Below are positions 1-13,927 of a stretch of DNA of 13,927 nt, in pieces. The stretch's first letter is position 1, and each line of letters begins with the position of its first letter. Under the pieces are notes generated by a model. That model ran no database searches and had not been told where the DNA came from. It was given only the letters and a program-made list of their open reading frames with translations. Origin of the DNA: Victivallales bacterium (GTDB lineage Bacteria; Verrucomicrobiota; Lentisphaeria; Oligosphaerales; Oligosphaeraceae); the NCBI GenBank assembly GCA_017431185.1, contig JAFRLP010000384.1, positions 1 to 13,927 of the forward strand, written 5' to 3'. The position numbers were made by a program, and so were the translations under genes.

Positions 1-354
1 ATCGAAAACACCAGCGACGACCCTGGGCTCAACGTCTCCCGACTGGCGCAGAATTTCCATCTGCACCGCGGAAGTTTCAGCCGCGCCTTCCACAAGGCGT
101 TTGACACCACCGCCCAGGACTACATAACCCTGGTGCGCCTGCGCAACGCCATGACGATGCTCGCGGAGTCCTCCTTCTCCATCAAGGAAATCGCCACCGC
201 CTGCGGCTTCAGCGCCGCCAATTACTTCTCCAAGGTCTTCCTCGCCAAACTCGGCATCTCCCCCCTCAAATACCGCCGCCAGGCCTCCGCCCAGGCAGAG
301 CAGCCCCGCACCCCATCAGGCAACACGATTGCCGATGGCAAGGCGTCTGATTGA
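1..354 (+). CDS. AraC-family transcriptional regulator, C-terminal part (5' truncated by window edge)
   Basis: Frame 1 is open from the first base to a TGA at 352-354, giving 117 residues of what must be a longer protein. The visible part is the paired helix-turn-helix DNA-binding domain of the AraC/XylS family. The first HTH lies around visible residues 10-32 (NVSRLAQNF, then a recognition helix with GSFSRAFHKAF). The second is at about 59-84 (SIKEIATACGFSAANYFSKVF), followed by the typical GISPLKYRR end. The sensor or ligand domain lies upstream and cannot be seen. A hydrophilic tail of about 20 residues follows. The gene points towards the pseudopilin/hydrolase unit starting at 502, 147 nt away, so it is a plausible local activator of that unit. 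The family call rests on motif pattern and is secure; the regulatory target is inferred from position. Confidence 0.92.
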   Translation: MENTSDDPGLNVSRLAQNFHLHRGSFSRAFHKAFDTTAQDYITLVRLRNAMTMLAESSFSIKEIATACGFSAANYFSKVFLAKLGISPLKYRRQASAQAEQPRTPSGNTIADGKASD

Positions 355-422: not shown

Positions 423-451
423 TTGAAAACCATCTGACCGAGATATATATT
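423..451 (+). promoter_or_regulatory. Sigma70-like promoter for the pseudopilin/hydrolase unit
   Basis: TTGAAA (423-428) and TATATT (446-451) are separated by exactly 17 nt. Each differs from the consensus by one base. A start would fall near 458, leaving a leader of about 44 nt before the ATG at 502. The surrounding AT-rich stretch contrasts with the GC-rich genes. I found no clear AraC direct-repeat site. Confidence 0.55.
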
Positions 452-469
452 ATTTCAGTCAATGAATCT

Positions 470-479: not shown

Positions 480-501
480 AAAAAAACATCAGGGGAATTC
501 C

Positions 502-1188
502 ATGAGAAAATCCTTCACTTTAATCGAATTGCTCGTAGTCATCGCCATCATAGCCATACTTGCCGCAATGCTTCTTCCTGCATTGAGCAAGGCGCGCGAA
601 AAGGCCAGGACGGTTTCCTGCATCAGCAACCTGAAGCAGCTGGGGCTGGGGTGCGCCATGTACCAAAGCGATACACAGGGATGGCTCTACGCCGGCTCAA
701 CATACATCGTGCCGTTCTGGAATGAACTGGCCGAATACCTCGGAGTCAACAAGAAGACCTCAATGACGTCCACGGCAGGGGGTTCGCTGAAAGGACGCCC
801 TGCGGGCGTGCTGCACTGTCCGTCCGCCCCGACAGCCCCGATATGGGCCTCCATTCTCACTGACTACGGGTTCAACATGTGCCTGGGCGCCAAAGGGGAG
901 TATGCGCCGTGGCCCAGATTCAGCAACGGCTTCTTCTTCGCGGAAAAGGTCGCCTGGCCGACACGTATCCTGTATTTTGCGGACGTGCAGCACGGCTCGT
1001 CCTCCATCACGCCATACTGGGGCGGCGACCAGGAAGGCAACCATAACCCCCGACACAACGGCATGCTCGGATTAAACGCCTTGCTGCTGGATGGACATGC
1101 GGAGAATTTCCGCAGGGACAAGTTCGAGTCCCGCTACAAGGGCTACCGTTATCGGTGGACTGCCACCGACACCAACGGGGAACGCTGA
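502..1188 (+). CDS. Pseudopilin-like protein with type IV prepilin N-terminus (copy 1)
   Basis: This 228-aa protein has a 4-residue leader (MRKS), then FTLIE and a hydrophobic helix to about residue 27, ending [12 protein letters not shown]. This is the prepilin-type cleavage/methylation signature, with the conserved Glu at mature position 5. The residue before the cleavage site is Ser rather than the usual Gly. The rest is a soluble domain of the kind seen in the large pseudopilin families of Lentisphaerota and Planctomycetota. It contains a PRH triad (183-185) followed 11 residues later by DGH (197-199), the hallmark C-terminal DGH motif. AGGGGA (491-496) lies 5 nt before the ATG and supports this start. 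The stop is 27 nt upstream of the exported hydrolase, so the two are probably cotranscribed. Family membership is secure. A role as a secretion or surface partner of the downstream enzyme is inference. Confidence 0.9.
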
Positions 1189-1196
1189 CCATCCAT

Positions 1197-1206
1197 CCGC
1201 GCCTGG
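1197..1206 (+). repeat. Intergenic 10-mer CCGCGCCTGG, copy 2
   Basis: This lies in the 27-nt gap between pseudopilin 1 and the exported LamG hydrolase and overlaps the hydrolase's GGAG ribosome binding site (1205-1208). Confidence 0.6.
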
Positions 1207-1215
1207 AGCCAGAGT

Positions 1216-4200
1216 ATGCGCACAATGATCCGAAACCTATTGTGTGTCCTGACGGTTTTGTCAACGGCAGCGCAGGCCACCGAGTACATTGAGCAAAGCT
1301 ACACCCAGAAGATGCGCTCGTTCACCAAGGCGGGCGGCTTTCCCGATGACGCCAAACTCTTCGGTGTCTCCTTCGAGCATCTTCACTTGAACTCAGACTG
1401 GAGCCGGGGCAGCGGCACGCCGACTGGAGTCACCGACATCAACCTGGCCCTTCGAGGAGTCATCGGCTTTGACGCCAAAAACGCCTATAAGGCCGAGCCG
1501 GACGAAGACCTCAAATACCCCGCGCCAGGCAATGTCAACCCCCACCAAGGCACCGTGATGTTCTGGGTGGCCGGACTTGACCATAACCCAGGCGATGAAC
1601 TGACCAACGGCCAAAAGCGCACCAACATCGCGCTCTCCGAACTGCGTTTCGGTGACGGCAAGGAGCATATCTCCATCAAAATCTACGAATACAACAGTTT
1701 CCTGGCGGCGCTATGGTCCAGTTCGGCCATGCCCGAGGTCAAGGGATACGGGGCAATCGGACTGTGCGAGACCAAACTTGATTTCCGGCGCGGCCAATGG
1801 TACCTGCTCGCCGTCACCTGGGACTCCGAGACGCTGGCCCTGTTTGTGAACGGCAAACTCCGTTCGCGTTCAGGTATGCCGCCGAAAATCAAATTCACCG
1901 CCAACCTGAAGATGGTTCGGGAGGACTCCTTCATCGGCGTGCGCAGCAAATTCTACGATGACGACCACCGCCATGCCGTCGGAATAGACGATTTTGTCAT
2001 CCTCAACCGCCCTCTCACGGACATCGAGATGGGCAACTCCTACCGTGGCCTGTGCAAGGGAGGAACAGACCCGGCGCAGATTTTCAACGTCCATTTCAAC
2101 GGCGTGGACACAGGCGCCAAGACGATAGACAAACTGGAGGCGGTGTTCGACTTCTCCGGTCTGGACAACCAGGAGCGGAGCCTGCTCAACGACGGCAAGT
2201 TGCCCGTTCTCTACACGCTGCTCAGTCCGGACAGGCAGAAGATATCCTCTGGCGCTCTGGATATCCGCAAGGTCAGCGATTCGTATGTGTTCGGAGGAGT
2301 GGACACCCCCGGGCGCTACGAACTGCAACTTCAGGTTGGCGACCACAAAGGCGTGTTTTCCGTGGAGCGTCCCGACTTCAGTTGGCTGGGCAACGGCATC
2401 GGCGAGGAGCCGACCATCCCCGACTCCTTCCCCGACTTTGCGGTCCAAGGGCGCAAGGTGCAGCTGTGGAACCGTTGCTACCATTTTGGCAAGGGGCCAC
2501 TGCCGGAACGCGTGGAATACTGCGGAAACACCCTGCTGGTGCATCCACCCGCCTTGTCACTGGACAAGCGGAAAATCAAATGGAGCACAGGCAAGACCAT
2601 CCAGGGGCCGACCTCGGTCACCTTCACGGGGACAGGACGAGCCTCCGACTGCACCATCGACTACCAGACCAAAGTCGAGTATGATGGTCTGATAGACCTG
2701 AAATTCACCGTCCATGGCACCCCCACGGTCAGTTCCATGACCTTGGACTGGCAGGTGAGACCAGAATCCGCGGAGTTCCTGATGACGCCGAAACTGAAGC
2801 CCGCAGGCCCGCAGGCCTTCACCTTCCCCGTCAGTAAACTGGACAACCAGCTCTGGCTGGTCGGCGAGGGGACGGGCGGATTCTGCTGGACTACCGAGAA
2901 TGACGCCAACTGGGTCTATGGCGACCGCGAGAAAGTCCTCTTCGGCGACACGGTGACGGGCAAGTGCCAAGTCAGGATGATCACCCGACAGGCTGCCATC
3001 CCCAATGGAGCGCAGTACTCCGCGCTGTTCATCGCGACTCCGACCCACCCGTTCCGCACTCCGCTTCGGTTCAATGCCTACGACATCGGAAGCAAGCGCT
3101 ACCCATGGGCCATCACCTGCACGGGGGCGGACAAATCCTCAGGGGCATACACGGGGGTGTTCAACCTGCGCCCCAGCAAGTACGCCAGTCGTTTCTGGGG
3201 CAAATCCCTGCCACGCAGTCTCTGCACCTACAATGCGGCGGAGAGCGGCACGGAGGTGATGCCCGAGGCGATGTACCTGCGAAAATACGCGGAGGTGCCA
3301 GGCGAGTACAGTTATCGGATGCCCTACTGGCGAGTGGTGGATGACACGGGCAAGCAGGTGCGCGAGTACCAGAATTCCATCTCCTTCTGCAATGGCTGCT
3401 TCATCACCGATTTTCTGATGTACAACAACAAGATTCTGCTGGATTCGGAATTCGAGGAGAAGATCGGCATGCTCAACTACGATTTGTCGGAGAACACGCT
3501 ATGCTCCAACATTCACCACGGCTGCCAGTTCAAGGACGATTTCGGACGCTATGTGAAGACCTTTGTCCTGCGAAAGAAACGCCAACTGTTCGAGCGCACC
3601 ATCCGGCTTTGCCATCCCAAGGGAATCTTCTTGTCGTTGCACGCGCAGAACCGCTATTGTCCGATGCTTCACGGCATTGGGGACGTGTGGGACCCGGGCG
3701 AGGAGAACTGCGCCGTGCTCAAGGACAGGCCGTATGCCCTGATTGACGGAACCATTGACGAACGGCTCTTCCGCTCGGAGTACAACCGCGATGTCATCGG
3801 AGTCAATGTCAGAATGAGCTGCGCCATCGCGCAACTGAACTCCAAGAATCACGAAAACGCGGGAGCGGCCATCGCCGCCATGACCATGATGATGCTCTAT
3901 GACATTGATTTCTCCCGCCTGTGGATGAATTATCAGGAGGTCTGCCGTCTCTGGGACATTCTGGCGCGCTTTGATTTCCGCAACGCCTCCGTCGAGGCCC
4001 ACAAGTTCTACCGGCAACGCGAGGTGCTGGCCGGCAATGACCAGGTGCTGGTCACCTGGTACGCCTGTCCACAAGGGAAGAAACTGCTTGTCCTGGGCAA
4101 TCGGACAACTGAGCCGCAGACCACTGTCATTGACCTGAATCGGCTGCTGCCAGGCAACCGCACGGCCAGAGAGGAGATGCAGCGTCAGGACATCGCCATC

Positions 4201-4266
4201 GTCAACGGCCTGTTTTCGGCAACCGTTCCGCCACGGGCATTCCTGCTCGTGAGCGTTTCCGAATAA
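1216..4266 (+). CDS. Exported LamG-domain protein with putative glycoside hydrolase region (GH123/DUF6067-like)
   Basis: This is a 1016-aa protein. A Sec signal peptide is visible at residues 1-21 (basic MRTMIRN, hydrophobic core, AQA before TEY). Residues about 105-270 form a LamG/concanavalin A-like jelly-roll, with TVMFWV near 112 and AVTWDSETLALFVNGK at 199-214. A further beta-rich segment runs to about 550. GFCWTTENDANW (555-566) resembles the block preceding the barrel in GH123/DUF6067-type proteins. HHGC (767-770) and the stretch around H809, D823, D826 and E829-E830 resemble their C-terminal catalytic half. It would act in the periplasm or outside the cell on a glycan; the substrate is unknown. 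GGAG (1205-1208) lies 7 nt before this ATG; a second ATG at 1225 is possible but shortens the basic n-region. Export and LamG are well supported. The hydrolase family is a tentative reading from motif resemblance. Confidence 0.7.
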   Translation: MRTMIRNLLCVLTVLSTAAQATEYIEQSYTQKMRSFTKAGGFPDDAKLFGVSFEHLHLNSDWSRGSGTPTGVTDINLALRGVIGFDAKNAYKAEPDEDLKYPAPGNVNPHQGTVMFWVAGLDHNPGDELTNGQKRTNIALSELRFGDGKEHISIKIYEYNSFLAALWSSSAMPEVKGYGAIGLCETKLDFRRGQWYLLAVTWDSETLALFVNGKLRSRSGMPPKIKFTANLKMVREDSFIGVRSKFYDDDHRHAVGIDDFVILNRPLTDIEMGNSYRGLCKGGTDPAQIFNVHFNGVDTGAKTIDKLEAVFDFSGLDNQERSLLNDGKLPVLYTLLSPDRQKISSGALDIRKVSDSYVFGGVDTPGRYELQLQVGDHKGVFSVERPDFSWLGNGIGEEPTIPDSFPDFAVQGRKVQLWNRCYHFGKGPLPERVEYCGNTLLVHPPALSLDKRKIKWSTGKTIQGPTSVTFTGTGRASDCTIDYQTKVEYDGLIDLKFTVHGTPTVSSMTLDWQVRPESAEFLMTPKLKPAGPQAFTFPVSKLDNQLWLVGEGTGGFCWTTENDANWVYGDREKVLFGDTVTGKCQVRMITRQAAIPNGAQYSALFIATPTHPFRTPLRFNAYDIGSKRYPWAITCTGADKSSGAYTGVFNLRPSKYASRFWGKSLPRSLCTYNAAESGTEVMPEAMYLRKYAEVPGEYSYRMPYWRVVDDTGKQVREYQNSISFCNGCFITDFLMYNNKILLDSEFEEKIGMLNYDLSENTLCSNIHHGCQFKDDFGRYVKTFVLRKKRQLFERTIRLCHPKGIFLSLHAQNRYCPMLHGIGDVWDPGEENCAVLKDRPYALIDGTIDERLFRSEYNRDVIGVNVRMSCAIAQLNSKNHENAGAAIAAMTMMMLYDIDFSRLWMNYQEVCRLWDILARFDFRNASVEAHKFYRQREVLAGNDQVLVTWYACPQGKKLLVLGNRTTEPQTTVIDLNRLLPGNRTAREEMQRQDIAIVNGLFSATVPPRAFLLVSVSE

Positions 4267-4298
4267 TAATTCCCCACTCTTTCACAAGGAGAACACCA

Positions 4299-5042
4299 AT
4301 GCAATACTTGAAGATGCTTCCCTACCAGGTGCGCACGGCGATAGACGCCAACGTGCCTGTTGTGCTTCCCATGGGAGTCATTGAATACCATGCCGAACAT
4401 CTACCGCTGGGTGTGGACTGCTTCACCTGCATCAACGCCATCGAGCGGGTCGAGAAGCGCCATCCTGAAATCGTGGTGCTGCCGCCCTTCTACTACGGGG
4501 CTGCCTCGCTGGCCGTGGCCGCTCCCGAGCGCAACGGCACTGTGCATGTGGACGCCTTGAAGCTCATCCCCGTCGCGGAGGAGATTTTCCATGGACTGCT
4601 GCGTGTGGGCTTCCGCAACATCCATGGCTTCATCGCCCACCAGACCGAGGAGTTCCACCAGGGAATGCCGACCGACCTGGCCTTCCGAATGGCAGCCAGG
4701 CATGTCATCTTCAACTGGCTCGAAAAGGAGAGCGGCGAAGGCTGGTGGGGCACCGAGCAGTTCAGCAACTACTATTCGGGGAACAACAACCCGTTCAACT
4801 GGATTCAAATCCACACCTGCCGCGAGCACCGCGAAGACCCCAACGCCATCCCTGGCGACCACGCCGGCAAGGTCGAGACCTCCGAAACCATGGCCATCTA
4901 CCCCGAACTGGTGGAACTGGACCGCATTGACGGCTCCCTCTGGTATGCACGGGAGGGCAAGGAGGCCACCGCGGAATACGGCAACATGGCCATGGAGGCC
5001 GCAGCCGACGACGTGGAGCTCACCCTGTTCGGAAAAAACTGA
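4299..5042 (+). CDS. Creatininase-family metal-dependent amidohydrolase
   Basis: This 247-aa protein has the usual length of the creatininase family. Predicted metal ligands E29, H31 and D40 (in PMGVIEYHAEHLPLGVD) match the spacing of E34, H36 and D45 of creatininase. H114 (IAHQTEE) occupies the place of the His in the usual NGHGGN/NGHYEN block, which is otherwise rewritten. GDHAGKVETSETM (186-198) is the conserved late block. There is no signal peptide, so it is cytoplasmic. AAGGAG (4286-4291) lies 7 nt before the ATG. The gene sits 32 nt after the exported hydrolase and 17 nt before a glycosidase-like gene, so a role in glycan or polyol breakdown is likelier than creatinine metabolism. Family members hydrolyse cyclic amides and related ring compounds; the real substrate is unknown. 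The final codons GGA AAA AAC TGA carry a possible frameshift site. Confidence 0.88.
   Translation: MQYLKMLPYQVRTAIDANVPVVLPMGVIEYHAEHLPLGVDCFTCINAIERVEKRHPEIVVLPPFYYGAASLAVAAPERNGTVHVDALKLIPVAEEIFHGLLRVGFRNIHGFIAHQTEEFHQGMPTDLAFRMAARHVIFNWLEKESGEGWWGTEQFSNYYSGNNNPFNWIQIHTCREHREDPNAIPGDHAGKVETSETMAIYPELVELDRIDGSLWYAREGKEATAEYGNMAMEAAADDVELTLFGKN
5033..5042 (+). other. Candidate -1 ribosomal frameshift site at the end of the creatininase gene
   Basis: The heptamer A AAA AAC (5033-5039) is in the correct X XXY YYZ phase and is followed directly by the TGA stop (5040-5042). After a -1 slip the reading frame continues through CTG ACC CGT CCC AGT GCA GCC into the ATG at 5060 without a stop, giving a fusion of about 940 residues. 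A Shine-Dalgarno-like GTGGAG (5013-5018) sits 14 nt upstream, roughly where bacterial stimulators are found. No stable structure lies at the usual 5-9 nt downstream. This is a sequence match only; ordinary termination and reinitiation is the alternative. Confidence 0.35.
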
Positions 5043-5059
5043 CCCGTCCCAGTGCAGCC

Positions 5060-7138
5060 ATGACGCAAGAGCGCAACTACGATTTCCGTGCCAGGCACTG
5101 GCAAGTCCATCTGCCTGGCCGCCGCAATTCCGCCAGAGTCCCGCAGCCCGCCGAAATCCTGCTGGACGAAGGCTGGAAACTGGGTTTTCCCGCCGATGCA
5201 GGAACGGTCATCGTCAACGCGATGAACGACTTCCAGGACTACCTGTTCGTCTCCATGGGCATATCCCTGCCCCTGACCCACACGCGCGGACAGCGTACCC
5301 TGTGGATGGAGAGGAGCAATACCCGAAAGCGTGGCTTCGACCTGACGGTGGAGGAGGCCAACGTCACCATCCAGACGGCGGAGGAGGACGCCTTCAAGGC
5401 GGTCGTCCATCTGGAGGACATGATGGGCCTGGAGGGCGCCCCTGTGCTGACCAAAGGCTGTTTTGACCGCACCCCGCTCTATGACTACATCAGCATCCAT
5501 TCGGGCTGCGGCATAGACGACTACAACGACAATGAGCTGCTGGCGATTGTCCATGCGGGCTACGACGCCATCAACATCATGGTCAAGGACTTTGACGTCA
5601 CGGCGGCTGGCCCAGCCAACATCAACGACATCATCGAGCGGGCGGCCAGGTTCGGGGTCAAGTCCTTCCTGTTCAACTACATGGAGTGCTACCACCATCC
5701 AGATGAGGATAATGTCCAGCAACACTTTGACGCAATCTACGGCGAACTGTTCCGGCGCTATCCCAAGGCGATAGGCATAGGCTTGTGCGGAGAGTCGCTG
5801 AGCTTCCCCAGCAAAGACCCGCACACATCGGGCAAGCCGTACCGAAAGAGCGTGATAGACGGGATACCCGACACCCGCCCCAGCCCGGGCTGGTACCCGT
5901 GCTGCGACTATCCAGCCTACCTGGAGTGTGTCCGCAAGGCCGTCCATGCGGTCAAGCCGGAGGCGAAAGTCCTCTGGAGCACCTACAACTGGGGCTACAC
6001 TCCCCTGGACATCCGCCGCAAGTTTCTGGAGGCGTTGCCCAAAAGGCTTTCGCTGGAAGTGACCTACGAGATTTTCTCGCAGCGCGAACTGGAGGGGATG
6101 AAGACCCCCGTGATGGACTACACGATTTCAGCCCAGGAGCCAGGGTACTACTTCACCAGCGAGTGTACGGAGGCCCACCGCCTGGGCATTCCCATCGAGG
6201 CCAACTGCAACGTGGCGGGGGTCGCCTGGGACTTTGGCGTGGTGCCCTATGTGCCCGTCCCCGACCGCTGGCTGGTCCGCTGCCGGCGACTGCGGCAGGC
6301 GCACTATGACTGGGGGGTGACCACCCTCTACGCCACCCACCATTACGGATTCTGGAACTGCATCGCCTCCGACATCGTGAAATGGACGAGTTGGGAGGGT
6401 TTTGAGCCAGACTACGGGGAACTGTTCCGCAAGGTCGCCGTCCGCGACTATGGGGAGCAGCATGCTGAGCAGGTCTTGCGCGCCTGGAGTCTGTGGGGCA
6501 AGGCGATGGACCACTACATCGCCAGCAACGAAGACCAGTACGGGCCGTGGCGTGTCGGCGCCTCCTACCCGTTCATCTTCCAGCCCAACATCACGCGCAC
6601 GATGGCCCCCAAGGAAATCCAATTCCCCACGGCTCCTCACGCGCATTTCGGGCACCGCATCATCAAGACCTTCTACACGCCCTACGAAAACGAGAACCAG
6701 ACGCCTGGCTTCCTGCGCTATCCAGCCGAACTGCGCTCCCTGGATCGTATGCTGAAACTCTGGGAAGAGGGGTTGGCCGCCGTCCAGTCCCTGAAAGGGA
6801 CGCCTGCGGGCGACCGCCTGGAGGCACTGGGGCATTTCATCCGCAACTCCATCCGCACCACCATTCACATCAAGCAATGGTGGCGGCTCAACATGAGGAT
6901 GCAGAACAGCGAGACACGCGAAGAGGCCCTGGCGATTCTGGACAGAATCGAGGAACTGGCCAAAGTCGAGATGGACAACGCCCGCGACACCATCCCCGCC
7001 GTGGAGACGGACTCCCGGCTCGGCTGGGAACCCAGCATGGAGTATGTCACCGACAAGTGGCACCTGGAATGGAAAATCCGCCAGGTGGAGGCCGCCCTCC
7101 GTGAAATCGCCACCTACCGCGGCTGCCTGAAACAGTGA
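5060..7138 (+). CDS. Cytoplasmic glycosidase-like TIM-barrel protein, family uncertain
   Basis: This 692-aa protein has no signal peptide or membrane segment. Residues about 28-75 (AEILLDEGW to SMGISL) resemble the small alpha/beta domain that precedes the barrel in GH20, GH67 and GH84 type enzymes. The middle part (about 145-470) reads like a TIM barrel, with strand-like motifs such as AINIMVKD, SFLFNYMEC and VLWSTYNWGY (304-313). IGIGLCGESLSF (238-249) places E245 at a strand end, a candidate catalytic acid. The C-terminal 200 residues are mostly helical and include DSRLGWEPSMEY (651-662). The gene starts 17 nt after the creatininase stop and has no good Shine-Dalgarno site, so translational coupling or frameshifting is plausible. 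It probably cleaves short imported sugars, but I do not recognise the exact family. Confidence 0.6.
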   Translation: MTQERNYDFRARHWQVHLPGRRNSARVPQPAEILLDEGWKLGFPADAGTVIVNAMNDFQDYLFVSMGISLPLTHTRGQRTLWMERSNTRKRGFDLTVEEANVTIQTAEEDAFKAVVHLEDMMGLEGAPVLTKGCFDRTPLYDYISIHSGCGIDDYNDNELLAIVHAGYDAINIMVKDFDVTAAGPANINDIIERAARFGVKSFLFNYMECYHHPDEDNVQQHFDAIYGELFRRYPKAIGIGLCGESLSFPSKDPHTSGKPYRKSVIDGIPDTRPSPGWYPCCDYPAYLECVRKAVHAVKPEAKVLWSTYNWGYTPLDIRRKFLEALPKRLSLEVTYEIFSQRELEGMKTPVMDYTISAQEPGYYFTSECTEAHRLGIPIEANCNVAGVAWDFGVVPYVPVPDRWLVRCRRLRQAHYDWGVTTLYATHHYGFWNCIASDIVKWTSWEGFEPDYGELFRKVAVRDYGEQHAEQVLRAWSLWGKAMDHYIASNEDQYGPWRVGASYPFIFQPNITRTMAPKEIQFPTAPHAHFGHRIIKTFYTPYENENQTPGFLRYPAELRSLDRMLKLWEEGLAAVQSLKGTPAGDRLEALGHFIRNSIRTTIHIKQWWRLNMRMQNSETREEALAILDRIEELAKVEMDNARDTIPAVETDSRLGWEPSMEYVTDKWHLEWKIRQVEAALREIATYRGCLKQ

Positions 7139-7152
7139 TGCCACAAATCGCA

Positions 7153-7183
7153 CAGGTTGCCCGCGCCTGGCGCGGGCAACCTG
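7153..7183 (+). terminator. Strong GC-rich hairpin closing the catabolic unit
   Basis: CAGGTTGCCCGCG (7153-7165) pairs perfectly with 7171-7183, and C7166-G7170 can close further, leaving a tiny CTG loop. It lies 15 nt after the stop of the 692-aa gene. No U-tract follows (the next bases are ATATCAAAATC), so it may be a transcript-end stabiliser or a factor-assisted terminator rather than a classical intrinsic one. Its centre contains the repeated 10-mer CCGCGCCTGG. Confidence 0.55.
7161..7170 (+). repeat. Intergenic 10-mer CCGCGCCTGG, copy 3
   Basis: This forms the top of the hairpin 7153-7183 behind the first catabolic unit and in front of the AAA-ATPase gene. Confidence 0.6.
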
Positions 7184-7220
7184 ATATCAAAATCAAAGGC
7201 TGCCCTCTCTACCCTATTTC

Positions 7221-7249
7221 TTGACAAATGTAGATAACTGGAGTATAAT
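7221..7249 (+). promoter_or_regulatory. Consensus sigma70 promoter for the AAA-ATPase gene
   Basis: TTGACA (7221-7226) and TATAAT (7244-7249) match the consensus perfectly with a 17-nt spacer. A start near 7256 would leave a leader of about 20 nt. AGATA (7232-7236) and TATCT (7249-7253) form a small inverted repeat across the -10 region, possibly an operator. The gene is therefore an independent transcription unit with potentially high expression. Confidence 0.85.
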
Positions 7250-7263
7250 ATCTGCCTACGACG

Positions 7264-7275
7264 GGAGACGACTCC
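7264..7275 (+). promoter_or_regulatory. Ribosome binding site inside a small hairpin
   Basis: GGAG (7264-7267, within GGGAG 7263-7267) is the Shine-Dalgarno site, 8 nt before the ATG at 7276. It can pair fully with CTCC (7272-7275) around an ACGA tetraloop, ending directly at the start codon. This could dampen translation from the strong promoter, but a 4-bp stem is marginal. Confidence 0.35.
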
Positions 7276-8826
7276 ATGAAGGATTTAACCAGCAGCGTTT
7301 ATAGTTTTGAAGACTTGATACAGGGAAATTTCCTGTATGTGGATAAGACGGAATACATCTGGCGCCTGATAAGACCCGCCAAAGGTATGTATTTTCTCTC
7401 CCGTCCGCGCCGTTTTGGAAAATCGCTGACGATTTCGACCATAAAAGCCGTTTTTGAGGGGAAGAAGGAACTGTTCCAGGGCCTGAAGTTCCACGATAAG
7501 CCATACGACTGGAAAACCTATCCTGTGCTTCATCTGGATTTGAATGGCTTTGACTTCAGCGACAGCGATGCGGTCAGAAGCAGTTTATGCCGACTAATGC
7601 GTGAAGTGGCGGAATCCCATCATCTGAAATTGACGGAATCCAAACCAGACCAGATGTTCAGGGAGGTCATTACGAAACTCTCGAAGAAAAAGAAACTAGT
7701 CATTTTGCTCGATGAGTATGACAAGCCGATTTTGAACAATATCGACAAATCGGAATGCAAACAGATTTTAGAGGATTTAAAATCTTTTTACTCTGTGATA
7801 AAGGCTTTTGAAGGAAGACTTCGCTTTGCCTTCATCACTGGAGTAAGTAAATTCTGCCATGTATCGCTATTCTCCGACCTGAACAACCTCACCGACATCA
7901 CAATGGACTACGACTACGCCACGATGCTGGGATACACGCAGGAAGAGTTGGAATCCTGTTTTGCCGACCGAATCGAATCAGCCTCCAGGCATCTGAATAT
8001 GCCAAAGGAGCAATTGCTTCCGAAAATCAAGGAGTGGTACGACGGCTATCGATTCCACGAAGAGGCCCCAACCGTCTATAATCCAGTATCTTTGGCGGAA
8101 TTCTTTGGCAAACGCTTCAAATTCGACAGTTACTGGTTCGCCACTGGAACCCCGTCGTTTCTGATGAAACTCGTCAAAAAGACCAGATTCGACTTTGACG
8201 ACATGCTTGCAAAACCAGTTTCCTCCATGGCTTTCAACGCCTTTGAAATTGAGCGGCTCGACCCGCTGACGCTGCTGTTGCAGACAGGCTATCTGACCAT
8301 CAAGTCCATGGTGGAGAAATACAATATGCCGTGGTATTGGCTTGATTTCCCGAATCGGGAGGTCAGTTTCTCCTTCAACACCAGCCTGGTGAACGCCTAC
8401 GCCAGAAAATCGGACACCCAGGTCGTCAATTTCTGTGAACGGCTGGCGGAGGCCATGGACACAGGAGATGTGAAGCAACTTCGCAAAGTCATGGAGGTCT
8501 TCTTCGCCGGAATATCATACGAGGTCCACCACAAGGACGAAAGCAATTTCCAGAACATCTTCTTTGCGCTGTTCCGTCTGCTGGGATACTACATCAAGGC
8601 GGAGTCCCATACCAACGACGGACGCATAGACGCAGTGGCCGAAACGGAGAAATACGTCTTTCTCTTTGAATTCAAACTGGACGGCGATGACACCGCCCTT
8701 TCCCAAATCAAGAAGAAGCAATATTACAGGCAGTATGAACTGTCCCAGAAAAAGATTTTTTTGAACGGAGTCTCCTTCAACACCCAAACTGGCCAGCTCT
8801 CCGACTGGCAAACCATCACCCTATAG
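7276..8826 (+). CDS. AAA-ATPase-like protein with C-terminal PD-(D/E)XK nuclease-like domain
   Basis: This 516-aa protein has the two-domain layout of the AAA-ATPase_like (PF09820) plus PD-(D/E)XK (PF08011) family. FLYVDKTEYI lies at 19-28. The unusual Walker A is RPRRFGKS (43-50), Walker B is LVILLDEYD (141-149, D146/E147), and a sensor-like ITGVSKF lies at 187-193. The nuclease-like core has D452 (GRIDAV) and E465-F-K467 (FEFK), with E443 upstream, so the active-site residues are present. The family is abundant and often multicopy in Bacteroidota, Fusobacteria and Lentisphaerota, and its function is not settled. The gene has its own consensus promoter and is more AT-rich than its neighbours (for example 7770-7830). 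Structured GC-rich repeats lie on both sides. This suggests a later insertion unrelated to sugar use. Confidence 0.92.
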   Translation: MKDLTSSVYSFEDLIQGNFLYVDKTEYIWRLIRPAKGMYFLSRPRRFGKSLTISTIKAVFEGKKELFQGLKFHDKPYDWKTYPVLHLDLNGFDFSDSDAVRSSLCRLMREVAESHHLKLTESKPDQMFREVITKLSKKKKLVILLDEYDKPILNNIDKSECKQILEDLKSFYSVIKAFEGRLRFAFITGVSKFCHVSLFSDLNNLTDITMDYDYATMLGYTQEELESCFADRIESASRHLNMPKEQLLPKIKEWYDGYRFHEEAPTVYNPVSLAEFFGKRFKFDSYWFATGTPSFLMKLVKKTRFDFDDMLAKPVSSMAFNAFEIERLDPLTLLLQTGYLTIKSMVEKYNMPWYWLDFPNREVSFSFNTSLVNAYARKSDTQVVNFCERLAEAMDTGDVKQLRKVMEVFFAGISYEVHHKDESNFQNIFFALFRLLGYYIKAESHTNDGRIDAVAETEKYVFLFEFKLDGDDTALSQIKKKQYYRQYELSQKKIFLNGVSFNTQTGQLSDWQTITL

Positions 8827-8879
8827 CGGGGGATTGCAAAACCATCGGGGCAATTGCTCATTCACGGCATGGTCAGCCA

Positions 8880-8913
8880 CCCCCGCCGCAAAGCGCAATG
8901 CCAGGCGCGGGGG
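8880..8913 (+). other. GC-rich inverted repeat between the AAA gene and lacI
   Basis: CCCCCGC (8880-8886) pairs with GCGGGGG (8907-8913) around a 20-nt loop that itself contains CGC-AAA-GCG (8887-8895). It may end the AAA transcript, but no U-tract follows. The right arm overlaps CCAGGCGCGG (8901-8910), the reverse complement of the 10-mer at 7161-7170. Otherwise the 204-nt gap 8827-9030 holds only the lacI promoter region. Confidence 0.4.
8901..8910 (-). repeat. Intergenic 10-mer CCGCGCCTGG, copy 4 (inverted)
   Basis: CCAGGCGCGG on the + strand is the reverse complement of the other copies. It sits behind the AAA-ATPase gene, inside the inverted repeat 8880-8913. Confidence 0.6.
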
Positions 8914-8973
8914 AGGTAGGCGCCCACCACGTGCCCCCAACAGCCATCGCGCCAAAAAATGCAAGACATTGGC

Positions 8974-9001
8974 TTGACAAATCGGAAAGGGGATATAAAT
9001 T
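8974..9001 (+). promoter_or_regulatory. Probable lacI-type gene promoter
   Basis: TTGACA (8974-8979) is a perfect -35 and is embedded in CTTGACAAAT, the same 10-mer as at the AAA-gene promoter (7220-7229). The -10 is ambiguous: TAAATT (8996-9001, 16-nt spacer) fits spacing best, while TATAAA (8994-8999) fits the sequence but with a 14-nt spacer. The AT-rich stretch 8993-9015 contrasts with the GC-rich DNA before it. Confidence 0.5.
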
Positions 9002-9019
9002 GATAATACGTATAACCAA
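9000..9019 (+). promoter_or_regulatory. Candidate LacI-family operator (autoregulatory)
   Basis: TTGATAATACGTATAACCAA is an imperfect 20-bp palindrome, with 8 of 10 base pairs symmetric around a central CG (9009-9010) and a perfect ATACGTAT core. Even length with a central CpG is the usual form of LacI-family operators. It lies just downstream of the probable -10 and touches the Shine-Dalgarno AAGGA (9018-9022), so bound repressor would block its own gene and the genes behind it. Binding is inferred. Confidence 0.5.
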
Positions 9020-9030
9020 GGATAGATGCC

Positions 9031-10098
9031 ATGAATGTGACGATGAAGAGCATAGCCCGTGAAATCGGGGTGAGCCAGCCGGTGGTATCGGCGGTTTTGA
9101 ACAATCGGAGTTATTGTCGCGTTTCGGAGGAGAAGCGGGAGGCGATTCTGGCGTTGGCCAGGAAACTGAATTTTCGGACAAATAGCGCGGCGCGTCGTCT
9201 GAAGGGGAAGAAGACCAACACCATTGTGATTTTCACGGGGCGGAACTGTTCCGTCTTGCAGAATGAGATTCTGCGGAGCATGCTTGGGTTGCTGGAGATT
9301 CGTCATCTGCATTCCTACACGATAGCCGTCAGCGACGAGCAGGAGTTGAACGAGAAGCTTCTGGACATGAACGCACTGGGAGTGGATGCGTTCATCGGAT
9401 TTTACCTGGATTTTGAACTGAACATTCAGGAGATGGCGTTGCCGGGAGTAAGCGTAGGGGTTCAGCGTCGCCACCCGGACATCGCCGCGAATGCCCACCA
9501 GGGCGCGGAACTGCTTTGCCGCCATGTGCTGGGACACGGGTATCGGCGGATCGCCTTTCTGTGCAACACGGTTGAGGCCAATATAGACAAGTACTCGGCG
9601 ATAGAGCATTGCATTCGCGCGTCACGGAGGAGGTCGGCGTCCCTGAAGACGCTGGAATTCCATCACAATCCCAATGTCGTCGAAGAGATTTTTGACGCGG
9701 TGAAAAAGGACAAAACAGAGGTGTTCATGGCCTCGAATGACTTTGTCGCCGCCAGGCTGATGTCCTTGTTGCAGCATTCTGGAATAGAGGTTCCGGGGCA
9801 GGTGGCGATTACGGGATTCGACGGCTTGTCCGTTGGCATGATGACCTCGGTTTCTCTGACCACCGCCGTTCAGCCGGCTGCTCTCATTGCGGAGCAGACA
9901 GCCGAATTATTGTGTGCCCGAATGGAGCACAGGGAGACGGAGCGGAGAATCCTTCTGCCAGTCGATGTCCTGGTCGGCGAAAGCTGCGGCTGCCGACAAA
10001 CATTTCAACCAGGGTTCTACTGGGATGTCATGTCACCATTGATTGACGCATCCTTCGGGATTCCGCCCTTCGGAGAAAACTTTGCAAAACATGAATAG
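9031..10098 (+). CDS. LacI-family transcriptional regulator
   Basis: This 355-aa protein has the family's usual length. The N-terminal HTH is at about residues 5-24 ([19 protein letters not shown]), followed by [26 protein letters not shown] and a hinge helix NSAARRL at about 51-57. The remainder follows the periplasmic-binding-protein fold that senses a small ligand, usually a sugar. Visible landmarks are GVDAFIGF near 113, the interdomain [10 protein letters not shown] near 170, [12 protein letters not shown] near 232 and VAITGFDGL near 259. The end is VLVGESCGC plus a short tail. AAGGA (9018-9022) lies 8 nt before the ATG. It leads a probable operon with pseudopilin 2 (31-nt gap) and the second exported enzyme, so it likely controls that set and itself. 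The effector is unknown. A second ATG at 9043 (M5) would only trim four residues. Confidence 0.95.
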
Positions 10099-10117
10099 TT
10101 TCTTTGTCTGCAAAAAA

Positions 10118-10123
10118 AAGGAG
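10118..10123 (+). promoter_or_regulatory. Ribosome binding site fixing the start of pseudopilin 2
   Basis: AAGGAG (10118-10123) lies 6 nt before the ATG at 10130. The frame is open further upstream to an ATG at 10043 inside lacI, but that start has no such site and would bury the prepilin leader 38 residues deep. The start is therefore set at 10130. Confidence 0.85.
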
Positions 10124-10129
10124 TTTGAA

Positions 10130-10780
10130 ATGAGAATCCCCAATTTGCGAAAAACGTTCACTTTGATTGAGTTGCTCGTCGTCATAGCCATCATCGCGAT
10201 ACTTGCGGCGATGCTGCTTCCCGCCTTGAGCAAGGCTCGGGAGAAGGCGCGGAGCATCTCCTGCTGCTCGAATCTCCGGCAGATAGGGCTCTCCCTGCTG
10301 ATGTATGCGTCTGACAACGATGACATTTTCCCGCCCCACATAACCTACGACGGCACGACCTACGGGATACGCTGGCCTCATCGGGTAATCAGCGACAAGC
10401 GGGTGGCCTCCTGCCCCTCCCACGACTACGAGATGACCTGGGCGGCGGGCAAGACCTCCTATGGAATCAATGTCTGGATGGTTCCTCCCAACGGGGTGTG
10501 CAAGACCGCCAGCATCAAAAGGCCTTCGGAGAAACTGCTGGTGGCGGACATCATCAATCTGCAGAATTACGGGACGAAGTACACAGGCGCTTTGTACAGC
10601 AATGGGACGTCCGCCTATACCGAGGGGATTTTCTATCCCCGACATGATTGGGGGGTGAATATTGGCTGGGTGGACGGGCATGTGTCGCATTTCAAATGCG
10701 CAGCCAAGAGCCAAACGGGTTTCTACGTGTTCACCAACTATTCCAACAGCAATAGCTGGATGTGGATGCCGAAGGAGTAA
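10130..10780 (+). CDS. Pseudopilin-like protein with type IV prepilin N-terminus (copy 2)
   Basis: This protein has 216 aa from the chosen start. The leader is MRIPNLRKT (9 residues), then FTLIE and the hydrophobic helix, ending [12 protein letters not shown]. Residues 10-36 match copy 1 (502-1188) almost exactly. The -1 residue is Thr instead of Gly. The soluble domain diverges from copy 1 but keeps PRH (170-172) and DGH (182-184) with nine residues between. The two genes use different synonymous codons in the shared block, so they are old paralogues rather than a recent duplication. It follows lacI by 31 nt and precedes a large exported enzyme by 89 nt, the same order as in the first unit. 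Family membership is secure; partnership with the enzyme is inference from the repeated arrangement. Confidence 0.9.
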
Positions 10781-10785
10781 AGGTA

Positions 10786-10806
10786 GCGGCGGCGTCTCGC
10801 CGCCGT
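10786..10806 (+). other. GC hairpin directly after pseudopilin 2
   Basis: CGGCGGCG (10787-10794) pairs with CGCCGCCG (10798-10805) around a TCT loop, and G10786-T10806 can add a wobble pair. It starts 5 nt after the pseudopilin stop. No U-tract follows. It may stabilise the upstream message or partly terminate it, so that pseudopilin and enzyme are made in different amounts. Confidence 0.5.
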
Positions 10807-10819
10807 CAACACAACGCAG

Positions 10820-10836
10820 GAAACACGGTGTGTTTC
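10820..10836 (+). promoter_or_regulatory. Perfect inverted repeat upstream of the second exported enzyme
   Basis: GAAACAC-GGT-GTGTTTC is a perfect 7-bp inverted repeat with a 3-nt centre, 18 nt before the Shine-Dalgarno site of the enzyme gene. It could be a regulator binding site or an RNA hairpin. It does not match the candidate operator at 9000-9019, so a different protein or an RNA role is more likely. Confidence 0.4.
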
Positions 10837-10854
10837 ATAGGAGTGATTTTCAAG

Positions 10855-10860
10855 AAGGAG
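10855..10860 (+). promoter_or_regulatory. Ribosome binding site fixing the start of the second exported enzyme
   Basis: AAGGAG (10855-10860) lies 9 nt before the ATG at 10870, which is followed at once by a good signal peptide. The frame is also open from an ATG at 10762 inside the pseudopilin gene, but that start would place 36 unlikely residues before the signal peptide. Confidence 0.85.
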
Positions 10861-10869
10861 ACAACGTAC

Positions 10870-13779
10870 ATGAAGTCGAATAGGGCATTCCGCCGTCTGC
10901 TGCCCGTCCTTGTGGCCTTGGCTGCCCTGGCCCAGGGAAGCCAGGATTTCCATGAAATCCATCTGTCGGAAAGCGAACCAGTCAGCCATCTGGGGGACAT
11001 TGATTTTTTCGCCAATCCCAAGTTCACTCCGCCGCCTGCCACAATGACCGAAAAGGCCTTTCTGAAGGAGCCTCTGGTTGACTTTGCCACCAATCTGGCA
11101 TGGACGGCAAGGCTGTTCCATTGCGAGGGATTCCTGTGCCTTTCCCGAGACCAGAGCATCCGAAATCGCCCAAACCTGAAACTGGAACTGACCAATAGTT
11201 GCCCGGACTCCCAGGCGGAGTTGCGCCCAGAGAGGCCGCTCCAGGCAATGCATGACTTTGACACTTTCATGCTGTTGGCCTATGCGAAGAACCTGACCGC
11301 CGTCACAGTGAGATTTAGAATGCCGAACGGCACACCATTCACCTGGAAAAGCCGAAACGACGACTTCAACGAAGTGCTGACAGGTTGGAATCTGCTGCGG
11401 ATTCCCCTGAAAACCACCCTGCCGGCGGGCACGCTGGTGGAGTCGATAGGCTTTGCCACCGTCCCTTTCCGCGCCAACAGGCCTCCGGACATTTGGCATC
11501 TGGAGCAGTTTGACGTCGCCATGGGAGCCGACCATCTGAAAAGGCCGCCCGTGGAGTTCCATCCCGGGCCGATTGTCAGGATTCCAGTGTCCCCAGAGGG
11601 AGCGCGCCCCGTTTCCCGTGAACCCGTCACCACGCGCGTATGGCAGGAGGGCGACTCCTTCCGCCTCGGCTATGCCAACGCGGAGGGGGATAGCGTCACC
11701 TACGTGTACCGTCCAAGGACTGGAACGCTGGAGGACATTGCGGTGTCCTGTGGTTCCGATGCGGAATTTCGCCCAGCCGTGGGGGGCGGGCCGATGTTTG
11801 AGGCGGAGGGAAAGGAGTTTGACTGCCGGACTCCTGGTCAGGTGGCTGCCGCGCCTCTGTCCGTGAAACTGGAGGTCAACCGTGTTTCCGCCATCTGGCA
11901 ATACCGCTTCGGCGACGCCGTGCAGGTCATCAGGTGGCAATTGACAATCCGCGAAAAAAGCCTGGTCGTGGATTTGGACTCCAGGGAGTGCTTCCTAAAG
12001 GAATGGAGACCTGGATATGCGGACGGCATGGCGGCGGAGGCCAAGGTCTTTGACGTTCCCTTCATGAACCATTCGCCGCGAATTGTCTGGAATGACGGTT
12101 GGTTCCTTTCCCATTTCCTTGACCACTACAAGGGAAACTTCTCAATGCATGCCCACGAGGCAGGAAATCAGGTCGTGGACGGCAAGGCGTTCTACCATTT
12201 TCTCCAGGGCGGATACTATTATGTTCCGCGCAGTGACGGCAGTCGGCATCCGCTTCGGGAAACGGTCTATCTGACCGTGGCAAGGAAATTCGAGGAGGTG
12301 CTGCTCAACCCCTCGAATCCGCAGTCGCCGCACCAGGGAATCATGAGCGACAATCTCTACAAGAAATTCGAGGTTCGCGCCGAAATCTTCGCGAAGGCCA
12401 AGGAACTGACCGACCTCTATGACCAATATGGGGTCAACCACATCTTCTTCGATGTGTTCTCCTTTGTCTGGATGTCTGGGGTCTGGGGAAGCCCCGAGTC
12501 CTCCTTCCATGCGGACAAGACCTCGTATATCCATCAGAAGAACGGCGGAGACCAGGGATTGCGCGAGATGCTGGCGGATGTGCAAAGGAAGGGGATGGTG
12601 CCTGGAGTCTATGAGACGTACAACGCCATGCAGGTGAAATCCAGCCAATGGGACCCGGCCAAGGTCGCCATCTCGCCCGAAGGCCATTGGCGCTACGCCA
12701 ACGTGCAGGCCTATATGCACAAGATGTGGGCGTTGCCGGACTGGGAACAGGGGTTCTTCCGGGAACGAAACCAAAGGTTCCAGCCGCGCCAGACAGGCTA
12801 TGTTGACGGTTTCACCTCGCGTCTGCCCTTCATGTACAACGACTACGACCATCGGTATCCCGAGGCGGGTAAGATGATTGACACAATCCGCGCCATCGGA
12901 ACAGGCTTCCAGCGCATCCGTGAGAATTACCAGGGGCCGGTGTTTGCCGAGGGACGCGGCGCTGACTATTATTGGGCCGGACTTAACGATGGGGATTACG
13001 GCAAACTGCCTGGCTTCGGTCATCGGCTGAAGCCTCGTCAGGCGCGCTATCCGCTGCTGGTCGATTTCCGGCTGAAGAAACTCAATCCGCTGGCTCCCGC
13101 CTGGGGATTGAACATCGGCTACTCCCTTTTCTGCGGCAATCCCTCGTTCATGACGGATGACTACAGTCTGCTTTACCACTACCTGGCGATGAACATCGCC
13201 TTCGGAACCGTCGGCTTCATCGAGCCATGCGGGGACGCCTACCCCGACCCGCACACGCACTTTGACAAGACGCTGGAGACATACTACCTGGTACGCCAAC
13301 TGCAGAAACGCTACCTGATGCAGCAAGTCAAGGCAATCCGCTATTTTGATGGTGACCGCCTGGTCTCCACCGAAGAGGCGCTTGTCTCCGGAAAATACCG
13401 CGACAATATGCTGTATGTGGAATATGCGAACGGCCTGGAAATCTACATCAACTGCAATTGGGAGGACCGCGTCTGGGAAATCACGGTGGATGGACAGCAG
13501 GTTCTGCTGCCTGGCGGCGGGTGGTTCGCCCGCCAGGGAAACGATTTCCTGGAATATTCCGCACTGCGGAACGGCTCCAGAGTCAGTTTCGTGGACTCGC
13601 CCGAATATCGGTATTTGAATGGCTATGGCCAGAAAGTAGATGTGGGCGGTTGCGTCTCCGACCGCATTCTGATACAATGCAAGAGCGGCAGAAGGGCCGG
13701 GGAAACCCTGCTTTATCCTCCTTTGCAACCCTTGCCCTCACCCGCCCCTGACAGCAGAACACAACCGCCCGCGCCATAA
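10870..13779 (+). CDS. Large exported glycosidase-like protein, family uncertain (GH101/GH36-type layout)
   Basis: This protein has 969 aa from the chosen start. The signal peptide is residues 1-23 (MKSNRAFRRLLPVLVALAALAQG). Residues about 90-225 read as a carbohydrate-binding-like beta-sandwich. Residues 255-390 look like a beta-supersandwich (RLGYANAEGDSVTYVYRP; SLVVDLDSRE). A barrel-like region follows, with HIFFDVFSFVW (524-534, D528), GYVDGFTSRLPF (643-654, D646) and VFAEGRGADYYWAG (691-704, E694). D646 and E694 at strand ends are reasonable nucleophile and acid/base candidates. A beta-rich C-terminal part (about 830-945) ends in a Pro-rich tail that merges into the repeat DNA beyond. 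The order of domains recalls GH101, GH36 or DUF5696 proteins, but I cannot assign a family. It should act outside the cytoplasm on a glycan. It is the last gene of the LacI/pseudopilin unit. Confidence 0.65.
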   Translation: MKSNRAFRRLLPVLVALAALAQGSQDFHEIHLSESEPVSHLGDIDFFANPKFTPPPATMTEKAFLKEPLVDFATNLAWTARLFHCEGFLCLSRDQSIRNRPNLKLELTNSCPDSQAELRPERPLQAMHDFDTFMLLAYAKNLTAVTVRFRMPNGTPFTWKSRNDDFNEVLTGWNLLRIPLKTTLPAGTLVESIGFATVPFRANRPPDIWHLEQFDVAMGADHLKRPPVEFHPGPIVRIPVSPEGARPVSREPVTTRVWQEGDSFRLGYANAEGDSVTYVYRPRTGTLEDIAVSCGSDAEFRPAVGGGPMFEAEGKEFDCRTPGQVAAAPLSVKLEVNRVSAIWQYRFGDAVQVIRWQLTIREKSLVVDLDSRECFLKEWRPGYADGMAAEAKVFDVPFMNHSPRIVWNDGWFLSHFLDHYKGNFSMHAHEAGNQVVDGKAFYHFLQGGYYYVPRSDGSRHPLRETVYLTVARKFEEVLLNPSNPQSPHQGIMSDNLYKKFEVRAEIFAKAKELTDLYDQYGVNHIFFDVFSFVWMSGVWGSPESSFHADKTSYIHQKNGGDQGLREMLADVQRKGMVPGVYETYNAMQVKSSQWDPAKVAISPEGHWRYANVQAYMHKMWALPDWEQGFFRERNQRFQPRQTGYVDGFTSRLPFMYNDYDHRYPEAGKMIDTIRAIGTGFQRIRENYQGPVFAEGRGADYYWAGLNDGDYGKLPGFGHRLKPRQARYPLLVDFRLKKLNPLAPAWGLNIGYSLFCGNPSFMTDDYSLLYHYLAMNIAFGTVGFIEPCGDAYPDPHTHFDKTLETYYLVRQLQKRYLMQQVKAIRYFDGDRLVSTEEALVSGKYRDNMLYVEYANGLEIYINCNWEDRVWEITVDGQQVLLPGGGWFARQGNDFLEYSALRNGSRVSFVDSPEYRYLNGYGQKVDVGGCVSDRILIQCKSGRRAGETLLYPPLQPLPSPAPDSRTQPPAP

Positions 13780-13927
13780 TTGCCGCGCCACCACCCGCGC
13801 CGCAACCACCCCCGCCGCACCACCCGCGCCGCACCACCACCCGCGCCGCAACCACCCGTGCCGTAACCACCCGCGCCGCACCACCACCCGCGCCGCACCA
13901 CCACCCGCGCCGCACCACCACCCGCGC
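13780..13927 (+). repeat. C-rich tandem repeat array, continues past the window edge
   Basis: From about 13782 the sequence consists of tandem units of 14, 15 and 17 nt. The long unit is GCGCCGCACCACCACCC, the short one GCGCCGCAACCACCC, with a variant GTGCCGTAACCACCC. About nine units are visible, and the last three complete units are identical 17-mers. The + strand is C-rich with hardly any T, and the other strand carries GGG/GG runs. Units of 14 and 17 nt break any reading frame, so it is non-coding. It starts directly after the stop of the exported enzyme gene and leaves no room for a classical terminator. Confidence 0.9.

What the first reader, a model, noticed from the sequence alone, without database searches (positions are those of the whole stretch)
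502..13779. Repeated module: regulator, pseudopilin, giant exported enzyme
The order regulator (AraC or LacI), then a prepilin-type protein, then an exported glycosidase-like protein of about 1000 aa occurs twice (1-4266 and 9031-13779). The regulators and enzymes are unrelated between the two units; only the pseudopilin class is shared. This suggests a system in which each exported enzyme has its own pseudopilin partner for secretion, assembly or surface display. The order is visible; the partnership is inference.
Basis: partly seen in the sequence, partly recalled or inferred. Interest (0 to 1): 0.72.

Follow-up and report, generated by a model that had tools for sequence, protein, structure and literature searches.

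The report
Regulator, pseudopilin, exported enzyme cassette
Lentisphaerota bacteria carry many small gene sets that each join a sugar-type gene switch, a pilus-like protein with a constant tail and a changing head, and a large exported, often carbohydrate-related protein, so enzyme export or display may be matched one enzyme at a time; that last step is still untested.

Summary
Both units lie where stated: AraC fragment, pseudopilin, LamG/GH123_N protein (1-4266); LacI, pseudopilin, orphan exported protein (9031-13779).

Pseudopilins are abundant in relatives, yet adjacency exceeds copy number. In 1.1 Mb not centred on pilins, 18 of 46 pilins follow a regulator (shuffles: mean 1.9, maximum 7), 15 precede an exported protein (4.5, 11) and 9 have both (0.2, 3). 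Ten of 20 GntR and 8 of 15 LacI genes precede a pilin, 0 of 13 AraC genes. One genome (G002) lacks the pattern.

Unit 2 recurs with orthologous LacI, pilin and enzyme. In 5 of 5 close enzyme orthologues the pilin keeps its place and its head is the best match among 128. At 24-41% enzyme identity the pairing is labile; I found no long-range co-evolution.

The tail is nearly constant in protein, heads vary, and pilin 2 folds as a pilin. Best reading: self-regulated cassettes whose pilin joins a shared pseudopilus and serves its enzyme. Physical partnership is inferred; substrate binding by the head is a close rival. 'Each enzyme has its own pilin' is too strong: 12 of 28 large exported proteins do.

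The parts
1..354 (+). AraC-type regulator, C-terminal HTH part (cut by the window start)
   Evidence: Pfam HTH_18 8.5e-21, HTH_AraC 3.7e-16
423..451 (+). promoter-like site between the AraC gene and pilin 1 (TTGAAA-17-TATATT)
   Evidence: consensus scan, 1 found, shuffles mean 0.5; weak evidence
502..1188 (+). pseudopilin 1, 228 aa, [10 protein letters not shown]-terminus, C-terminal H-X11-DG variant
   Evidence: N_methyl 4.5e-7 and DUF1559 4e-8, over cut-offs; motif
1216..4266 (+). enzyme 1: exported 1016-aa LamG + GH123_N protein
   Evidence: Pfam; signal peptide by crude rule
8974..9001 (+). promoter-like site upstream of lacI (TTGACA-16-TAAATT)
   Evidence: consensus scan, 2 sites in the region scanned, shuffles mean 1.1; weak evidence
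9000..9019 (+). LacI-type operator-like 20-bp palindrome with central CG (8 of 10 pairs), 11 nt before lacI, overlapping the end of the -10-like hexamer
   Evidence: mononucleotide-shuffle p 0.02; only copy in the window within 3 mismatches
9031..10098 (+). LacI-family regulator, 355 aa
   Evidence: LacI 2.7e-9, Peripla_BP_3 8.1e-18
10130..10780 (+). pseudopilin 2, 216 aa, [10 protein letters not shown]-terminus, H-X9-DG motif, pilin fold
10870..13779 (+). enzyme 2: exported 969-aa protein of an orphan family (beta-sandwich region modelled with confidence, the rest not)
   Evidence: no Pfam; 13 homologues; model and Foldseek

Best explanation
Each unit is a self-contained, locally regulated cassette for one carbohydrate target. 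A GntR-, LacI- or AraC-family regulator senses a breakdown product and controls a pseudopilin and a large exported enzyme, in one transcript or from a promoter beside its own gene. The pseudopilin's constant N-terminal helix lets it enter a shared type II secretion / type IV pilus-like machine; its variable head makes that fibre fit the enzyme made with it, as an export adaptor or as a surface tether. Shown: gene order, its enrichment, inheritance of pilin with enzyme between close orthologues, constant tail and variable head, pilin fold of one member, carbohydrate-related domains in many cargoes. Inferred: substrate sensing, assembly into the shared machine, contact between head and enzyme.
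For: Enrichment over label shuffles in stretches not centred on pilins, 9 of 46 full trios against a mean of 0.2, and in pilin-centred stretches, 13 of 103 against 0.9. Of regulators with a readable next gene, 10 of 20 GntR and 8 of 15 LacI are followed by a pilin (binomial 2.6e-8 and 3.6e-7). Close orthologues keep the pilin (5 of 5) and its head is the best match among 128 pilins apart from the query itself; the regulator, readable in part, is orthologous in 3 of 4 testable pairs. Tail block 82-92% identical in protein within four genomes while identical residues share codons about as often as codon usage predicts. Canonical GspG over cut-off in 64 of 78 relatives, against many pilins per genome. 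Cargo domains include GH5, GH9, GH42, GH123, DUF4838, CBM9, LamG. CG-centred palindromes upstream of LacI genes followed by a pilin, 6 of 16 at shuffle p<0.05. Independent: in Verruconatronum a pulG-like pseudopilin gene lies in an alginate cluster reported as upregulated on alginate, and another pseudopilin outside it is over-expressed (PMC13274419, passages).
Against: 16 of 28 large exported proteins have no pilin directly upstream, and 31 of 46 pilins have no called exported protein next to them. Among enzyme homologues of about 20-40% identity, heads are no more alike than random ones (p 0.41; p 0.10), and the slot is kept in 25 of 62 places (counted), about the class-wide rate. G002 shows 0 of 19 and the G001 part of the unbiased sample 0 of 7 trios. 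The short pilin-to-enzyme gap is not special: median 24 nt against 29 nt for other same-strand genes. The palindrome count is only 6 of 16 against 3 of 15 for other LacI genes. The T2SS ATPase family that I found in 78 of 78 relatives also scores over cut-off in 13 of 14 control genomes, so it proves little. No direct evidence of head-enzyme contact or of assembly.
Confidence: 0.5

Rival explanations
1. The pilin head binds the polysaccharide, not the enzyme: it is an adhesin or capture subunit on a surface fibre, co-expressed with the enzyme because both serve the same substrate, much as SusD-like proteins accompany enzymes in Bacteroidetes loci (recalled).
For: Many cassette cargoes carry carbohydrate-related domains; heads vary between cassettes; co-expression alone explains adjacency and inheritance with the enzyme in close orthologues.
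Against: The one head modelled matched pilins and no lectin convincingly, which does not exclude binding; binding was not testable here.
Confidence: 0.32
2. Hitch-hiking: pilin genes spread with mobile regulator-enzyme cassettes or mark insertion points, without any functional partnership.
For: Enzyme families are patchy: at E <= 1e-60 the L027, L098 and L030 enzymes are found in 3, 7 and 16 of 78 relatives, and enzyme 2 has one close orthologue in 78; pairing turns over at long range.
Against: The tail is held at protein level while synonymous codons match near the codon-usage expectation, so DNA exchange at a shared site does not explain it; the order is directional and the partner is a large exported protein (12 of 28 against 0 of 46 small exported ones).
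Confidence: 0.15
3. Copy-number artefact: so many pilins exist that some fall beside enzymes by chance.
For: High copy number, 58 to at least 150 N_methyl matches in six genomes. In single genomes of the smaller sample some shuffles reach the single-neighbour counts (e.g. exported downstream in G070: 6 observed, shuffle maximum 7).
Against: In both pooled samples none of 1000 label shuffles reached the observed counts.
Confidence: 0.02

Closest known systems
DUF1559 / H-X9-DG pseudopilin-like paralogue family (PF07596, TIGR04294)
   Same: N-terminal prepilin motif, PF07596 over cut-off, massive paralogy. DUF1559: 74 genes in Rhodopirellula (PMC2754498, passages) and 68 paralogues in Planctopirus (PMC10632474, passage)
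   Different: Those passages describe unknown or solute-binding function and no regulator-pilin-enzyme order; here only the first 29-41 of 268 profile positions match
Type II secretion major pseudopilin GspG/PulG
   Same: Prepilin motif, pilin fold, structural neighbours PulG and EpsG
   Different: Far below the GspG equivalog cut-off (31.6 and 33.5 of 88.85 bits); many copies, often beside one exported protein each
Alginate cluster with pulG-like pseudopilin of Verruconatronum alginivorum (PMC13274419)
   Same: Pseudopilin gene inside a polysaccharide-degradation cluster reported as upregulated on alginate; 67 homologues in the genome
   Different: Verrucomicrobiota; a long operon, and the passages do not describe a repeated regulator-pilin-enzyme trio
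Polysaccharide utilization loci (Sus-type; recalled)
   Same: Local regulator plus exported carbohydrate enzymes per substrate
   Different: No SusC/SusD-type family among the nine window proteins; a pseudopilin takes the extra place

Membership tests
Type IV pilin / pseudopilin superfamily | N-terminal prepilin peptidase/methylation motif | tested here: met
   PF07963 over cut-off in both; TIGR02532 22.0 and 22.1 bits against 16.3
Type IV pilin / pseudopilin superfamily | Long N-terminal helix and pilin beta-sheet head | tested here: met
GspG equivalog | score over TIGR01710 cut-off 88.85 | tested here: not met
   31.6 and 33.5 bits
DUF1559 (PF07596) | score over Pfam cut-off | tested here: met
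   34.1 and 40.0 against 23.3 bits, but only the first 29-41 of 268 profile positions
H-X9-DG domain (TIGR04294) | score over cut-off 19 bits | tested here: not met
   pilin 2: 13.0 bits; pilin 1 not listed at E 0.01. The motif letters are present in variant form and 60 of 81 members of A3 match at E <= 0.1
Verru_Chthon cassette protein D (TIGR02596) | score over cut-off 70 bits | tested here: not met
   21.4 and 21.3 bits
Sus-type polysaccharide utilization locus | SusC/SusD pair beside the enzymes | tested here: not met
   no such Pfam family among the nine window proteins; limited to 13.9 kb
Type II secretion substrate-adaptor system | physical contact of the pseudopilin with its cargo | not testable with these tools
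   no complex predictor
Type II secretion substrate-adaptor system | T2SS machine genes in the same genome | not testable with these tools
   no genome is held for the window; in 78 relatives GspG is over cut-off in 64 and PF00437 in 78, but PF00437 is also over cut-off in 13 of 14 control genomes

The most novel reading that the evidence does not exclude
A plug-in secretion or display system: one shared T2SS/T4P-like machine is loaded with tens to hundreds of interchangeable pseudopilins that have one constant assembly tail and enzyme-specific heads, each switched on by its own sugar regulator together with the enzyme it exports or holds.
Probability: 0.3. Interest if true: 0.85.

Novelty: new variant of a known kind. 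Interest (0 to 1): 0.6.

Why it matters
Why bacteria of the Planctomycetes-Verrucomicrobia-Lentisphaerae group carry dozens to hundreds of pseudopilin-like genes of unknown function is an open question. A positional rule - sugar-type regulator, pilin, large exported protein - gives a testable answer: many of the paralogues are cassette parts tied to carbohydrate attack. If the heads are cargo adaptors, it would be a new way to give one secretion machine many specificities; if they bind glycans, it would be a pilus-based counterpart of SusD. Either way the pilin flags candidate carbohydrate enzymes without a family name, such as enzyme 2.

Tried and rejected
Co-evolution at long range: 87 pilin/downstream-gene pairs (gap up to 400 nt, downstream gene of 200 aa or more). 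For 47 homologous enzyme pairs the head similarity was not above that of 3562 non-homologous pairs (Mann-Whitney p 0.41). The mean exceeded most within-genome shuffles (32.1 against 26.2, sd 2.0, max 35.2), and I put that down to three pairs of 40% enzyme identity or more with 57-209 bits. Pairs with enzyme E between 1e-20 and 1e-3, or coverage under half, or near-identical pilins were dropped there. A rank test on 23 distant slots, with ranks copied by me, was also not significant (p 0.10).

Recombination-site idea for the constant tail: not supported; same-codon fraction at identical residues is 0.49-0.51 within four genomes against 0.44-0.51 expected, slightly above in three of the four; one G001 pair shares a 53-nt exact run.

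Lectin-type fold for the head: no convincing match by Foldseek or the second look; absence is no proof. Enzyme 2 by structure: the model is poor (mean pLDDT 58), so the Foldseek rows (CBM61 and glycosidases among them) are only hints. Solved-structure searches by sequence: 0 matches for enzyme 2, and 8 weak ones at E 0.07 or more for enzyme 1.

My first gene calls missed pilins lying under antisense ORFs or trimmed their starts (one search ended in an error); counts rest and later.

Papers: searches listed no paper that I recognised as describing the regulator-pilin-enzyme order; of the listed papers I opened passages of four only. Subscription journals are mostly not in that library.
Full report
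WHAT IS IN THE WINDOW. The stated order is there twice, all on the + strand. Unit 1: AraC C-terminal part (1-354), pseudopilin (502-1188), exported 1016-aa protein (1216-4266) with LamG and GH123_N domains. Unit 2: LacI (9031-10098), pseudopilin (10130-10780), exported 969-aa protein (10870-13779) without any Pfam name. Between them lie a creatininase-family gene, a 692-aa protein without Pfam match and an AAA-ATPase/PDDEXK_9 gene. The enzymes are not detectably related; the pilin heads are weakly related, 27%. The contig is 16,324 bases long according to the homologue table, and no genome is held for it. Of 19 loci with relatives of enzyme 1, 18 come from MAGs labelled Lentisphaeria, Lentisphaerae, Victivallales or Victivallaceae (rumen and sheep colon among the sources named) and one from a MAG labelled Smithella.

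IS IT MORE THAN CHANCE? I wrote a codon-usage gene caller and a crude signal-peptide rule, and built HMMs for GntR, LacI and AraC regulators from the loci. Sample A: 80 stretches that I chose around pilins among the listed best N_methyl matches of six genomes. Of 103 pilins with both neighbours, 24 have a regulator within 300 nt upstream on the same strand (1000 label shuffles within genomes: mean 6.3, max 14), 40 have an exported protein downstream (13.2, max 22) and 13 have both (0.9, max 5). Trios by genome: G001 4 of 25, G003 1 of 8, G004 3 of 16, G005 1 of 8, G006 4 of 27, and G002 (14.1 Mb) 0 of 19, with no same-strand regulator and no exported protein within 300 nt either. Sample B: 60 stretches, 1.1 Mb, not centred on pilins: G070 (evenly spaced on one 3.9-Mb contig), G001 (contig starts) and G071 (fixed offsets on contigs, most of them known to me from earlier pilin or T2SS listings, which may bias the choice a little). 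Of 46 pilins with both neighbours, 18 have a regulator upstream (mean 1.9, max 7), 15 an exported protein downstream (4.5, max 11), 9 both (0.2, max 3); trios by genome: G070 6 of 23, G071 3 of 16, G001 0 of 7. Of regulators with a readable next gene, 10 of 20 GntR, 8 of 15 LacI and 0 of 13 AraC are followed by a pilin. Of exported proteins, 12 of 28 of 600 aa or more, 3 of 24 of 400-599 aa and 0 of 46 of 150-399 aa have a pilin directly upstream; for genes without a called signal the figures are 12 of 88, 2 of 119 and 4 of 309. Of 38 same-strand genes directly after a pilin and not themselves called pilins, 24 code for 600 aa or more (counted from the list). So the module is real, but partial: 16 of the 28 large exported proteins have no pilin, and the same-strand AraC order of unit 1 is unusual.

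WHAT FOLLOWS THE PILIN. Of those 38 genes, 29 were scanned with Pfam; left out were 6 cut by a stretch end, 2 regulators and 1 pilin-like gene. Matches include DUF4838 (3 members), GH42 (3), DUF4832, GH5, GH123 catalytic, CBM9 and GH39 (2 each) and single DUF6259, GDSL lipase, beta-helix and CBM4_9, but also an oxidoreductase and GrpE; the tool gives members per family, so I cannot say how many of the 29 have any match. Of seven cargoes that I picked from sample A, four had a match over cut-off: GH9 with CelD_N, LamG, DUF6259 and a pectate-lyase-like domain. Many of the named families are carbohydrate-related.

INHERITANCE OF THE PAIR. I followed five enzymes into relatives (searches; analysis). 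Five distinct close orthologues with upstream sequence exist (54, 56, 66, 68 and 76% identity); two further close places are cut by contig ends. All five have a pilin in the same place, and its head is the best match to the query head among 128 pilins apart from the query itself (41, 57, 51, 59 and 86% identity). The regulator, of which 152-229 aa are readable, is also orthologous in 3 of 4 testable pairs (window LacI/L100 57%, L030/L171 74%, L098/L161 59%); unit 1 is the exception, with AraC in the window and GntR in L001; for the fifth pair no regulator could be read before the contig end. The creatininase and the 692-aa gene of unit 1 were not found in the 23-kb L001 stretch. Among homologues of 24-41% identity a pilin lies within 350 nt in 7 of 8 (L098 family), 16 of 27 (L030 family), 0 of 1 (L027 family), 0 of 8 (enzyme 2) and 2 of 18 places (enzyme 1; 5 more have a pilin within 1.5 kb, in L003, L006, L009 and L010 with a gene of 183-336 aa between). 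That is 25 of 62, counted by me with duplicate and truncated places removed, no better than the class-wide rate. It is a lower bound, since pilins cut by a locus edge (as in L135) and matches under 150 bits (as L103, which has a pilin-like gene upstream) were not counted. Head similarity there is at background as a whole. The pairing is stable on short and labile on long time scales.

REGULATION. A 20-bp palindrome with central CG, of the kind typical of LacI-family operators (recalled), lies at 9000-9019, at the end of a promoter-like site and before lacI. Of LacI genes followed by a pilin, 6 of 16 have such a palindrome at mononucleotide-shuffle p<0.05, against 3 of 15 other LacI genes, so this is suggestive only. 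LacI-pilin-enzyme can be one autoregulated transcript; in unit 1 a promoter-like site lies between the AraC gene and the pilin. Pilin to exported gene: median gap 24 nt in 57 cases; other same-strand genes: 29 nt, so closeness alone is not a sign of coupling.

LITERATURE. Passages of PMC2754498 and PMC10632474 treat DUF1559 as a large paralogue family of solute-binding or unknown function; a passage of PMC5352709 mentions one such protein on plasmids. Passages of PMC13274419 report, in the verrucomicrobium Verruconatronum, an alginate cluster upregulated on alginate that contains a pulG-like pseudopilin with 67 homologues, another over-expressed pseudopilin outside the two clusters, horizontal transfer, and a suggested role of the T2SS in alginase export; the passages do not say whether the cluster's own pseudopilin is among the proteins measured as over-expressed. 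That is independent support for the link, and it means that pseudopilins in polysaccharide clusters are not wholly new. My ten searches brought up no statement of the regulator-pilin-enzyme rule in the titles, abstract starts and passages that I saw.

VERDICT. A real, recurrent, locally regulated three-gene cassette of Lentisphaerota; partnership of pilin and enzyme plausible, not shown.

Noticed in passing
window 13782-13927: GC-rich tandem repeat, 17-bp unit, 9.1 copies, running off the window end right after enzyme 2.
   Followed up: no
window 7276-8826: AAA-ATPase_like plus PDDEXK_9 protein between the two units; no evident link to the cassettes.
   Followed up: no
window 4299-7138: Creatininase-family gene and a 692-aa protein without Pfam match follow enzyme 1 closely; neither was found in the L001 stretch.
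   Followed up: partly
window 10870-13779: Enzyme 2 belongs to an orphan family: 13 homologues, no Pfam, one close orthologue in 78 relatives.
   Followed up: partly
L012 1762-12529: Homologues of enzyme 1 in tandem, without a detected pilin in the stretch.
   Followed up: no
L098 8053-10167: A 704-aa protein with a GntR domain takes the regulator place; its C-terminal part is kept in L161.
   Followed up: partly
L082, L089 (G002) and L097 (G005): Runs of consecutive pilin genes, mostly without a called exported protein next to them; a different arrangement of the same family.
   Followed up: no
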